The notes under the pieces: generated by a model
The model's input: the letters and a program-made list of their open reading frames with translations, nothing else
Told to the model about the DNA's origin: nothing
The model's database searches: none
Part shown: piece by piece, positions 33,545 to 41,785 of the stretch
Position numbering within the stretch: the stretch's first letter is position 1
Layout: the number at the start of each line of letters is the position of its first letter
Made by a program: the position numbers and the translations under genes
Assembly (NCBI RefSeq): GCF_040253635.1
Contig: NZ_JBEJGX010000003.1
Location: forward strand, 2,852,001 to 2,916,000
DNA length: 64,000 nt
Reading direction: 5' to 3'
Source of the DNA: Streptomyces sp. Edi2
GTDB taxonomy: Bacteria > Actinomycetota > Actinomycetes > Streptomycetales > Streptomycetaceae

Positions 33545-36448
33545 CTACGCCGGAACGATGTTCACCAGCTTCGGCGCCCGGACGATGACCTTCCGGATGC
33601 CCGCGCCGTTCAGCGCCGCGACCACGGCGGGCTCGGCCAGTGCGGTGGCCTCCAGGTCCGCATCGGAGATCGACGGGGAGACCTCCAGGCGGGCCTTGAC
33701 CTTGCCCTTGATCTGCACGACGCAGGTCACGGCCTCGTCGACGACATACGCCGGGTCGGCCACCGGGAAGTCCGCGTGCACCACGGTGTCCGTGTGGCCC
33801 AGCTTGCGCCACAGCTCCTCGGCGATGTGCGGGGCCAGCGGGGCGATCAGCAGCACCAGCCGCTCCGCGACCGTGCGCGGAATCGGGCCGCCCGCCTTGG
33901 TCAGGTGGTTGTTCAGCTCGGTCACCTTGGCGATGGCGGTGTTGAAGCGCAGGTTCGCCAGGTCCTGGCCGACCCCGTCGATCGCCTTGTGCAGGGCCCG
34001 CAGGGTGGCCTCGTCCGGCTCGGTGTCGACGACGGTGACCTCACCGGTCGCCTCGTCGACGACATTGCGCCACAGGCGCTGCAGCAGGCGGTACTGGCCG
34101 ACGACGGCCCGGGTGTCCCACGGCCGCGACACGTCCAGCGGTCCCATCGCCATCTCGTACAGGCGCAGGGTGTCCGCGCCGTACTCCGTGCAGATCTCGT
34201 CGGGGGTGACGGCGTTCTTCAGGGACTTGCCCATCTTGCCCAGGACGCGGCTGACCTTCTCGCCCTGGTAGTAGTAGCCGCCGTCGCGCTCCTCGACCTC
34301 GGCGGCCGGGACGGCGATGCCGCGGCTGTCCCGGTAGACGAAGGCCTGGATCATGCCCTGGTTGTACAGCTTGTGGAACGGCTCGGAGGACGAGACGTGT
34401 CCCAGGTCGTGCAGCACCTTGGACCAGAAGCGGGCGTACAGCAGGTGCAGCACGGCGTGCTCCGCGCCGCCCACGTACAGGTCGACGCCGCCGGCCGGCT
34501 GACCGTCGCGCGGGCCCATCCAGTACTGCTCGATGTCCGGGGCGACCAGCGCATCGGCGTTGCGGGGGTCCAGGTAGCGCATCTCGTACCAGCACGAACC
34601 CGCCCAGTTGGGCATGGTGTTGGTCTCGCGCCGGTAGCGCTTGATGCCGTTGCCGTCGCCCAGGTCCAGGTCGACATGGACCCAGTCCTCGTTACGGGAC
34701 AGCGGGGTCTCCGGCTGGGTGTCGGCGTCGTCCGCGTCGAAGGTGCGCGGGGAGTAGTCCTCGACCTCGGGCAGCTCCAGCGGCAGCATCGACTCGGGCA
34801 GCGCGTGTGCCACGCCGTCCTCGTCGTAGACGATCGGGAACGGCTCGCCCCAGTAGCGCTGCCGGCTGAACAGCCAGTCGCGCAGCCGGAAGTTGACGGT
34901 GCCCTCGCCGATGCCCTCGGCGGCCAGCCAGTCGGTGATCTTCGCCTTGGCCGCCGTCACGCCCAGACCGTCCAGCGAGATCGCCGCGCTCGACGAATTG
35001 ACGATCTTGGCGTCGTACGAGGCGAAGGCGTCGTCCCAGGCCGAGGGGTCGGTGCCACGGTCGTCCGACGGCTCGACCACACAGCGCATCGGCAGCTCGA
35101 AGGCGCGGGCGAAGGCGAAGTCACGGCTGTCGTGCGCCGGGACGGCCATGATCGCGCCGGTGCCGTAGCCCATCAGGACGTAGTCGGCGATGAAGACCGG
35201 GACCTGCTCGCCGCTGACCGGGTTGGTCGCGAAGGCGCCGGTGAAGACGCCGGTCTTGTCCTTGGCCTCGGCCTGCCGCTCGACGTCCGACTTGGAGGCG
35301 GCCTGCTTGCGGTAGGCGGAGACGGCGTCGGCCGGAGTGGCGTGGCCGCCGGTCCAGACGTCGTGGGTGCCCTCGGGCCAGGCGTCCGGAACGATCGACC
35401 CGGTGCCGGTGCCGGTGCCGTTGTCGGAGCCGGCGACCAGCGGGTGCTCGGGCGCCAGCACCATGTACGTCGCGCCGAACAGGGTGTCCTGGCGGGTGGT
35501 GAAGACGGTGATCTTGTCGTCACCCACGGGGAAGTCGACCCGGGCGCCCTCGGAGCGGCCGATCCAGTTGCGCTGCTGCAGCTTGATGGCCTCCGGCCAG
35601 TCCAGCGCGTCCAGGTCGTTCAGCAGCCGGTCGGCGTAGGCGGTGATGCGCATGTTCCACTGGCGCAGCTTGGCCTTGAAGACCGGGTAGTTGCCGCGCT
35701 CGGAGCGGCCGTCGGCGGTGACCTCCTCGTTGGCCAGCACCGTGCCCAGGCCGGGGCACCAGTTGACCGGCGCGTCCGAGGCGTACGCCAGGCGGTACTC
35801 GCCCAGGACGTTGGCCCGCTCGATGGGGCTCAGCCCGTCCCAGGGACGGCCGTCAGGGGTCTGCCGGGTACCGGCCTCGAACTGGGCGACCAGGGTGTCG
35901 ATCGGACGCGCCGCGTCCGCCTCCGGGTCGTACCAGGAGTTGAAGATCTGCAGGAAGATCCACTGGGTCCACTTGTAGTACGCCGGGTCGATCGTCTCGA
36001 CCGAGCGGCGCTGGTCGTGGCCCAGGCCCAGGCGGCGCAGCTGGCGCCGCATGTTCACGATGTTGGCCTCGGTGGAGACCCGCGGGTGGGTGCCGGTCTG
36101 CACCGCGTACTGCTCGGCGGGCAGGCCGAAGGCGTCGAAGCCCAGGGTGTGCAGGACGTTGTGGCCCGTCATGCGCTGGTGGCGGGCGTAGACGTCGGTG
36201 GCGATGAAGCCCAGGGGGTGGCCGACGTGCAGGCCGGCGCCCGACGGGTACGGGAACATGTCCATGATGAACTTCTTGGGGCGGGCCGCCACCGCGGCGT
36301 CGCCGGTCAGCTCCCCGGTGGGGTTCGGGGCCTCGTAGGTCCCGTCCGTCTCCCAGAAGTCCTGCCAGCGGGCCTCGATGTCGGCGGCCAGCGCTGCCGT
36401 ATAGCGGTGCGGTGCTGCCACCTCGGCAGCAGTGGTCGTCTCGCTCAT
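33545..36448 (-). CDS. leuS: Leucyl-tRNA synthetase
   Basis: 967-aa class Ia synthetase. The HIGH-type signature is HVGH at 74-77 within [16 protein letters not shown]. The editing (CP1) domain is in the middle with the [14 protein letters not shown] segment near 435-450. The KMSKS loop is the variant KMGKS, followed by LKN, near residue 730, and an anticodon-binding and C-terminal domain follow. It attaches leucine to tRNA-Leu. ATG chosen with GAGGAC just upstream; a TTG three codons earlier is possible. Expression is probably governed by the leader peptide and attenuator immediately upstream. Confidence 0.96.
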
Positions 36449-36512
36449 CGTCCTCAAAGCTCCATCGATCGTCTCTGCCTGCGGAAACGCGCCGGAATCC
36501 CCGGCACGCCGG

Positions 36513-36541
36513 AAACAAAAAGACCCCTCGCACAGGAGGGG
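36513..36541 (-). terminator. Attenuator terminator in the leuS leader
   Basis: On the minus strand CCCCTC and GAGGGG form a six-base stem with a six-base loop, followed by TCTTTTTGTTT. It lies 65 bp upstream of the leuS start and 45 bp after the stop of a leucine-rich leader peptide. This is the position of a transcription attenuator, not the end of a gene. Confidence 0.8.
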
Positions 36542-36555
36542 ACGCCGCGCCGATT

Positions 36556-36579
36556 CCGACGGCTTCTGTCATCCGTCGG
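36556..36579 (-). other. Leader stem-loop between leader peptide and attenuator
   Basis: CCGACGG and CCGTCGG pair perfectly around a ten-base loop. It starts seven bases after the leader-peptide stop, so a ribosome stalled at the Leu codons or parked at the stop would influence whether it forms. It may be the pause hairpin or part of the switch. Confidence 0.6.
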
Positions 36580-36585
36580 TACTGA

Positions 36586-36624
36586 TCAGCGCGGCCCGCT
36601 AAGCAGAAGGCGTACGGCACGCAT
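36586..36624 (-). CDS. leuS leader peptide (attenuation)
   Basis: A 12-codon frame MRAVRLLLSGPR with three consecutive leucine codons (CTT CTG CTT) and stop TGA. CTT is uncommon in this high-GC genome, where CTG and CTC dominate. That fits selection for ribosome stalling when charged tRNA-Leu is scarce. A TACCCT hexamer lies seven bases before the ATG, so the transcript may be leaderless. Stem-loops and a U-tracted terminator follow before leuS. The layout is that of classical amino-acid attenuation. The function is inferred from arrangement only. Confidence 0.75.
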   Translation of the reverse strand: MRAVRLLLSGPR

Positions 36625-36705
36625 GGCGTCAGGGTACCGCAGGGCGTACGAGGCCCGCGCTGAGGATTCCCCCAACACGGGCCCCGCCCCCCGTTACCCC
36701 GCGCT

Positions 36706-36743
36706 CCCGCCGCCGCCCCACCGGGGTCACGGACGGCGGCGGG
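36706..36743 (-). terminator. Probable terminator of the S53 protease gene
   Basis: A ten-base perfect inverted repeat, CCCGCCGCCG with CGGCGGCGGG, with an 18-base loop. It begins 22 bp past the protease stop on the minus strand and precedes the leuS leader. Confidence 0.5.
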
Positions 36744-36765
36744 CAGGCGGTGCCGCGCGCCCGTT

Positions 36766-39142: not shown

Positions 39143-39215
39143 TGGAGCTAAGGAGAATTGAACTCCTGACCTCCTGCATGCCATGCAGGCGCTCTACCAA
39201 CTGAGCTATAGCCCC
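39143..39215 (-). tRNA. tRNA-Ala (anticodon GGC)
   Basis: A 73-nt cloverleaf: acceptor GGGGCTA/TAGCTCC with the G3-U70 pair that is the alanine identity element. The D-loop is AGCTCAGTTGGTAGAGC. The anticodon stem CCTGC/GCAGG encloses ATGGCAT, giving anticodon GGC. The T arm contains GTTCAAT. The 3' CCA is not encoded. It is identical to the copy at 41713-41785. Confidence 0.97.
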
Positions 39216-41712: not shown

Positions 41713-41785
41713 TGGAGCTAAGGAGAATTGAACTCCTGACCTCCTGCATGCCATGCAGGCGCTCTACCAACTGAGCTATAGCCCC
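41713..41785 (-). tRNA. tRNA-Ala (anticodon GGC), second copy
   Basis: Same 73 nt as the copy at 39143-39215, including the G3-U70 pair and anticodon loop ATGGCAT; CCA is not encoded. The identity extends a few bases into the flanks (TGTGGAGC and GCCCCG). It follows the nadD-rsfS-histidine phosphatase run by 112 bp and may be read from that transcript or its own promoter. Confidence 0.97.

What the first reader, a model, noticed from the sequence alone, without database searches (positions are those of the whole stretch)
36449..36640. Leucine leader peptide and attenuator in front of leuS
The minus strand holds, in order: a short frame MRAVRLLLSGPR with three adjacent Leu codons (two of them CTT, uncommon in this GC-rich genome), its TGA, a perfect 7-bp hairpin (36556-36579), a terminator with stem CCCCTC/GAGGGG and a U-rich run, then leuS. 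This is the order of classical attenuation, but for a tRNA synthetase instead of a biosynthetic operon. Streptomycetes generally use T-boxes for other synthetase genes, so leader-peptide control of leuS is notable. A TACCCT hexamer seven bases before the leader ATG suggests a leaderless leader peptide.
Basis: partly seen in the sequence, partly recalled or inferred. Interest (0 to 1): 0.72.

Follow-up and report, generated by a model that had tools for sequence, protein, structure and literature searches.

The report
Leucine-codon attenuator before leuS
[quoted passage not shown] this switch was already published for Streptomyces, but it is far more widespread and seems built a little differently from the textbook version.

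Summary
It is not new: leuS attenuators were predicted in two Streptomyces in 2005, and RNA-seq of S. lividans (2021) reports a leaderless leuL2, MRAVRLLLSEPR. The reported 7-bp hairpin is a variable insert in its loop. The region matches in 148 of 150 genomes of the genus (own genome counted); in 23 family labels of the class I confirmed the element in front of leuS. Stem A shows many compensatory changes. In 188 leaders the last Leu codon (CTT in 178) ends 5 nt before stem A, and a ribosome at the stop would cover at least half of its 5' arm in 181. Stem A abuts the terminator and in 174 shares no base with it, so I propose antitermination by abutment, unlike the textbook overlap. A sister leader with Ile codons precedes citramalate synthase, also in this genome. 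No regulation was measured here.

The parts
36631..36636 (-). -10 box TACCCT of the leader promoter; 6 nt to the ATG, so transcription probably starts at the ATG (leaderless)
   Evidence: TANNNT 6-7 nt upstream in 187 of 188 leaders; S. lividans leuL2 reported leaderless from RNA-seq
36586..36624 (-). leader ORF MRAVRLLLSGPR with stop TGA at 36588-36586
   Evidence: same kind of frame in relatives
36601..36609 (-). Leu codons CTT CTG CTT; the last ends 5 nt before stem A
   Evidence: third codon CTT in 178 of 188, spacing 5 nt in 188 of 188
36585..36595 (-). stem A, 5' arm GCCGCGCUGAU, contains the leader stop codon
   Evidence: compensatory changes in relatives
36544..36554 (-). stem A, 3' arm AUCGGCGCGGC, ends 2 nt before the terminator stem
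36524..36541 (-). terminator hairpin CCCCUC-CUGUGC-GAGGGG
   Evidence: compensatory changes in relatives
36513..36523 (-). U-rich tract TCTTTTTGTTT
33545..36448 (-). leuS, leucyl-tRNA synthetase (967 aa plus stop), with a GAGGA ribosome binding site at 36455-36451

Best explanation
Ribosome-mediated transcription attenuation of leuS. Transcription starts at the leader ATG, and a ribosome begins the 12-codon frame on a leaderless message. With leucine plentiful it runs to the stop codon, which lies in the 5' arm of stem A; it masks that arm, stem A cannot form, the terminator forms and transcription ends near 36513. When charged tRNA-Leu is short the ribosome halts on the Leu codons (above all the first), just upstream of stem A; stem A forms before the terminator is made and acts as antiterminator, so leuS is transcribed. 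Because stem A touches the base of the terminator without sharing bases, I infer that it works by abutment: two abutting helices cannot both be completed at the RNA exit of the polymerase, or they compete for the 0-2 linker bases. Shown by sequence: all parts, their conservation, covariation and spacing. Reported for S. lividans: the leaderless start. Inferred: translation, stalling, masking, antitermination and the leucine response.
For: Leu codons end exactly 5 nt before stem A in 188 of 188 leaders; with an assumed footprint (15 nt before to 11 nt after the first base of the A site) a ribosome at the first Leu codon covers none of the 5' arm in 188 of 188, and one at the stop covers at least half in 181, less in 7, none in 1 of these 7. 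The stop lies at -2 to +25 from the start of the stem. Stem A and terminator: 97.6% of cells paired, 14 of 17 pairs with changes on both sides, 150 such cells against a mean of 25.7 in shuffles; slid controls 43.0-53.9% paired. In 16 leaders with TAG at the stem's edge the 5' arm takes 10 forms, yet each still has 9-14 pairs. Linker from stem A to terminator is -1 to 2 nt in 184 of 188 while the loop of stem A runs from 3 to 53 nt. The same design with Ile codons precedes citramalate synthase. Published parallels: ilvB1 of M. tuberculosis, where a ribosome at the stop is proposed to mask the antiterminator and a reporter with the codons changed stays low (PMC13236596, passages); ilvBNC of C. 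glutamicum, whose adjacent antiterminator and terminator share only a trinucleotide (PMC11857589, passages).
Against: No expression data were examined. Stem A and terminator can coexist: RNAfold forms both together, so thermodynamics alone gives no switch. PMC1262725 reports that substituting candidate regulatory codons in the ilvB leader of S. coelicolor had no effect, and the ilvB leader of this genome has the same layout. A ribosome at the third Leu codon, the most constrained one, would mask on average 37% of the arm, so stalling there would weaken the proposed antiterminator. In 7 of 188 leaders the ribosome at the stop would mask less than half of the arm. Spacing figures are partly selected by model R1, whose training set includes the window sequence.
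Confidence: 0.6

Rival explanations
1. Textbook three-stem attenuator: stem A is the protector (pause or anti-antiterminator) hairpin, and a third hairpin, using the 3' arm of stem A and the 5' arm of the terminator, is the true antiterminator when a ribosome stalled on the third Leu codon masks stem A.
For: The third Leu codon is the most constrained one (CTT in 178 of 188) and a ribosome there masks part of stem A. PMC1262725 calls the leuS attenuators classical, with an antiterminator hairpin (passages; figure not seen). C. glutamicum ilvBNC is described with an anti-antiterminator (PMC11857589, passages).
Against: With the 5' arm of stem A masked and the terminator 3' arm not yet made, the terminator 5' arm is paired with mean probability above 0.5 in only 28 of 188 leaders, median 0.26. 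A candidate pairing of the stem A 3' arm with the terminator loop is not kept in relatives (read by eye).
Confidence: 0.2
2. The terminator only sets a basal leuS level and the Leu codons do not control it; promoter strength, Rho or RNA decay sets expression.
For: In S. coelicolor the codons of the ilvB leader could be changed without effect, as told in PMC1262725. Stem A and terminator are compatible structures.
Against: Leu codons at a fixed distance in leaders as different as LLLT-stop and LLLSGPR, and Ile codons instead in front of citramalate synthase, are hard to explain without codon sensing.
Confidence: 0.15
3. The conserved leader peptide itself acts, as an arrest peptide, rather than the codons and the RNA.
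For: The end LLLxxPR or LLLxxPC recurs widely.
Against: The R/C choice follows the pairing partner (C-G or U-A pair); 17 of 188 leaders stop before the last codons and 14 read further.
Confidence: 0.03

Closest known systems
Candidate leuS attenuators of Streptomyces coelicolor and S. avermitilis (Seliverstov et al. 2005, PMC1262725; abstract and passages seen)
   Same: Same gene and genus; leader ORF with Leu codons, antiterminator and terminator. I take the window element to be its ortholog.
   Different: They reported two species; which hairpin they call the antiterminator is in a figure I could not see. Spread beyond Streptomyces and the covariation test are added here.
leuL2 of Streptomyces lividans TK24 (PMC8079986; passages seen)
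   Same: MRAVRLLLSEPR against MRAVRLLLSGPR here; leaderless; hairpin and run of U before leuS.
   Different: RNA-seq support there; no test of a leucine response in the passages I saw.
ilvBNC attenuator of Corynebacterium glutamicum (PMC11857589; passages seen)
   Same: Leader with branched-chain codons; antiterminator and terminator hairpins adjacent at their bases.
   Different: There they overlap at a GCC trinucleotide; here no shared base in 174 of 188 leaders, 1-3 in 14.
ilvB1 attenuator of Mycobacterium tuberculosis (PMC13236596; passages seen)
   Same: Ribosome at the stop codon is proposed to mask the antiterminator; stalling on the codons lets it form.
   Different: Other gene and codons (LVVI).
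trp and pheST attenuators of enterobacteria (recalled, except that pheST is named in PMC1262725)
   Same: Codon sensing by a leading ribosome; synthetase control in pheST.
   Different: There antiterminator and terminator share sequence (recalled).

Membership tests
Ribosome-mediated leader-peptide attenuator | short frame with codons of the regulated amino acid | tested here: met
   three Leu codons; of the three places 3 are Leu in 167 of 188 leaders, 2 in 19, 1 in 2. Translation itself not tested.
Ribosome-mediated leader-peptide attenuator | intrinsic terminator between leader and gene | tested here: met
   helix 2 has changes on both sides in 7 of 7 pairs. The U-tract is poor in several Pseudonocardiales loci.
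Ribosome-mediated leader-peptide attenuator | a hairpin whose formation depends on ribosome position (masked at the stop, free when stalled) | tested here: met
   geometry only, with an assumed footprint; 181 of 188
Ribosome-mediated leader-peptide attenuator | read-through rises on starvation for the amino acid | not testable with these tools
   needs RNA-seq or reporters
Textbook three-stem (trp-type) attenuator | antiterminator shares sequence with the terminator stem | tested here: not met
   stem A and terminator share 0 nt in 174 of 188 and 1-3 nt in 14 after full extension; no conserved third hairpin (28 of 188)
T-box | match to the T-box covariance model | tested here: not met
   in the whole window only two tRNAs reached gathering score; at 36400-36760 with E up to 5 two chance-level hits, neither a T-box
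LEU element of leuA | pseudoknot with Leu codons paired to the gene's Shine-Dalgarno box | not tested
   definition from PMC1262725; the layout here differs, a terminator lies between

The most novel reading that the evidence does not exclude
Attenuators for leuS, and for citramalate synthase and ilvB, across Actinomycetes form one class that switches without shared bases: a ribosome-gated hairpin placed flush against the terminator acts as antiterminator by abutment (steric or linker competition at the polymerase exit), and one such module has been fitted to Leu, Ile and mixed branched-chain codons.
Probability: 0.35. Interest if true: 0.62.

Novelty: already known. Interest (0 to 1): 0.38.

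Why it matters
The leuS leader as such only confirms a published prediction. What would matter is the wider pattern: a leaderless, leucine-sensing switch kept over many actinomycete families, with a rigid layout and a hairpin that touches but mostly does not overlap the terminator. If shown to work, it would mean that antitermination needs no shared sequence, and would give a simple rule (codons, 5 nt, hairpin with stop, flush terminator) for finding other amino-acid switches in GC-rich genomes, such as the citramalate synthase leader found here.

Tried and rejected
Looked for a conserved antiterminator overlapping the terminator: (a) 3' arm of stem A with the terminator loop (e.g. CGCG with UGCG), rejected because Micromonospora loci L048 and L050 and loci with other loops lose it (by eye); (b) Leu codons with the GAGGGG arm, rejected: pyrimidine-rich codons pair easily with a G-rich arm by chance, and the logic would be the reverse of induction; (c) folding with stem A masked, 28 of 188.

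Considered translational control in Occultella (hairpin near an ATG, L066), rejected because by arithmetic that ATG is out of frame with leuS.

Earlier geometry counts had some misplaced frames or duplicates; one search replaces them. Its 197 rows are 100 of alignment A2, 67 of A3 and 30 of the genus search; the 30 loci L111-L140 were not used. Dropped: 3 citramalate synthase rows, 4 exact duplicates, L193 (no terminator by the script's rule) and L073 (Leu codon not at the expected place, though the parts are there). Near-identical relatives were kept. The start codon was picked as the nearest one with a TANNNT 3-10 nt before it.

Ascertainment: 97 of the 100 A2 rows were found with model R1, which already encodes the spacing, so fixed distances are partly selected; the -10 box and the downstream gene are not in the model. 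The window sequence is in R1's training set, so its own hit is by construction. 186 of 394 genomes with an R1 hit is an upper figure for leuS, since of 20 further hits fetched from family label f17 19 lie before citramalate synthase.

Full report
What is there. On the minus strand, TACCCT (36636-36631) is followed after 6 nt by ATG 36624, the frame MRAVRLLLSGPR with TGA at 36588-36586, a hairpin region, the terminator CCCCTC-CTGTGC-GAGGGG (36541-36524) with TCTTTTTGTTT to 36513, and leuS from ATG 36448. The downstream protein is leucine--tRNA ligase (TIGR00396, 884.9 bits). Of 200 shuffles 2 fold at least as well as the leader. No Rfam family matches here at gathering score (a lax search gave two chance-level hits).

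It is published. PMC1262725 (abstract and passages seen) predicted classical attenuators before leuS in S. coelicolor and S. avermitilis. PMC8079986 (passages seen) reports leuL2 of S. lividans, MRAVRLLLSEPR, transcribed leaderless and followed by a hairpin and a stretch of U. Three searches of the held library listed no other paper that I could see to describe a leuS attenuator: the three others with both leuS and leader peptide that I looked into mention a cited author's name or gene neighbourhood only (passages), and the rest I saw only as listings. That library lacks most subscription papers, so a report elsewhere is not excluded.

How widespread. The 216-bp region matches in 148 of 150 genomes of the genus, the own genome among them. 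Covariance model R1 (20 sequences; 19 of these are from the same 80 loci) matches 67 of the 80: 47 of 47 Streptomyces and close kin (among them Streptantibioticus, Kitasatospora and two titled only Actinobacteria bacterium), 11 of 11 Micromonosporaceae, 6 of 6 Pseudonocardiales, 2 of 2 Geodermatophilus, and Occultella; it misses 13 (4 Nocardia, Actinotalea, Actinomyces, Boudabousia, Arcanobacterium, Schaalia and four MAGs) (groups assigned by me from the record titles). In the class, 186 of 394 genomes have a hit. I fetched 100 loci (97 hits and 3 divergent genus matches) and got 30 more: in 125 of 130 leuS lies downstream on the same strand, 3 precede citramalate synthase, and L117 and L215 end with their contigs. 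By my count, hits fall in 30 family labels; leuS is confirmed in 23 of them.

Stem A is selected as RNA. On 100 aligned loci (97 leuS-type, 3 citramalate synthase) 97.6% of cells are paired, 14 of 17 pairs have changes on both sides, and sliding the partners drops pairing to 43.0-53.9%. The rows were aligned to the model, which favours its structure. The last leader codon changes from CGC (Arg) to TGC (Cys) together with its partner from G to A. In 16 leaders with TAG at the edge of the stem, bases no longer coding take 10 forms in the 5' arm and still make 9-14 pairs, for example GCCGCGUCG with CGACGCGGC in L207, where the loop is 3 nt. In the genus the inner hairpin is present in 69 of 71 distinct loops, so it is usual there, but it is not part of the shared design.

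Geometry. From 197 rows, 188 distinct leuS leaders were analysed (drops are listed under tried and rejected). The third Leu codon is CTT in 178, CTC in 9, CTG in 1, and always ends 5 nt before stem A. Assuming that a ribosome covers 15 nt before to 11 nt after the first base of the A site, one at the first Leu codon covers none of the stem A 5' arm in 188 of 188, one at the third covers 37% on average, and one at the stop covers half or more in 181 and less in 7. Stem A ends -1 to 2 nt before the terminator stem in 184, though its loop runs from 3 to 53 nt. After extending both stems fully they share no base in 174 and 1-3 in 14. TANNNT stands 6-7 nt before ATG (145) or GTG (42) in 187, against a mean of 6.3 nt from -10 box to transcription start in S. 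lividans; in L148 the contig ends there. These distances are partly selected by the model; the -10 box is not.

Mechanism. The layout fits a leading ribosome that frees stem A when it halts on the first Leu codons and masks it at the stop. Since stem A and terminator share no bases in most leaders, and no third hairpin is conserved (terminator 5' arm paired otherwise in 28 of 188), I propose that stem A itself is the antiterminator and acts by abutting the terminator. The closest precedent is C. glutamicum ilvBNC, with adjacent hairpins that share a trinucleotide (PMC11857589, passages); the ribosome logic matches M. tuberculosis ilvB1 (PMC13236596, passages). Against it: both hairpins fit together in folding, and PMC1262725 tells that codon changes in the S. 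coelicolor ilvB leader had no effect.

Sister leaders. In family label f17, R1 hits 60 of 61 genomes; of 20 further hits fetched there, 19 lie in stretches with citramalate synthase and 1 with leuS. The first three such loci have TIGR00977 as best family, 264-279 bits, under the cut-off of 450 because only 210-217 residues were given. Their leaders read for example MFYGLLIIGRRAG or VPSQVIIIARRAG: Ile codons in place of Leu, a stem with the stop beside or in it, and a terminator next to it; the box before the start is CAGACT or CACACT in most of those where the script saw one. A model of these, R2, matches 136 of 246 class genomes, and all 30 loci returned hold citramalate synthase; some other R2 hits coincide with leuS leaders, so 136 is not a count of citramalate synthase leaders. 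In the window's own genome citramalate synthase has VLSFAMIIGSRRAGPQ and ilvB has MRTRILVLGKRVG, each followed by a stem next to a terminator (read by eye); in the citramalate synthase stem I count one mismatch. In the held library no paper held citramalate synthase, leader peptide, attenuation and Actinobacteria together, and none of the 10 shown of 31 with three of these held the first.

Verdict. The leader is a published element; the added value is its range, the compensatory evidence for stem A, the fixed layout and the isoleucine sister.

Noticed in passing
L297 (own genome, G000:C3:6443150-6443294): Leader VLSFAMIIGSRRAGPQ with two Ile codons, a CACACT box, a long stem and a terminator next to it before citramalate synthase: an apparent isoleucine attenuator.
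   Followed up: partly
L291 (own genome, upstream of ilvB at G000:C3:6413692): ilvB leader MRTRILVLGKRVG has the same layout: stem AGCGCGUCGG/CCGACGCGCU directly followed by a CCCCUCG/CGGGGGG terminator (read by eye).
   Followed up: partly
just downstream of the U-tract in related loci (rows): A recurring motif such as UUUUCAUGUCCGG or UUUUGUGCCCGG follows the U-tract in many loci; no partner found and not quantified.
   Followed up: no
36524-36541 and relatives: The terminator loop CUGYGY is nearly constant between the Streptomyces and Micromonosporaceae loci, which struck me as unusual for a terminator loop; no role found.
   Followed up: partly
window 39143-39215 and 41713-41785, minus: Two tRNA genes with equal Rfam scores (70 bits) about 2.5 kb apart.
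   Followed up: no
L189 and L190 (genome G350): One genome has two strong hits of the leader model on different contigs, both with leuS downstream: two leuS copies or a mixed assembly.
   Followed up: no
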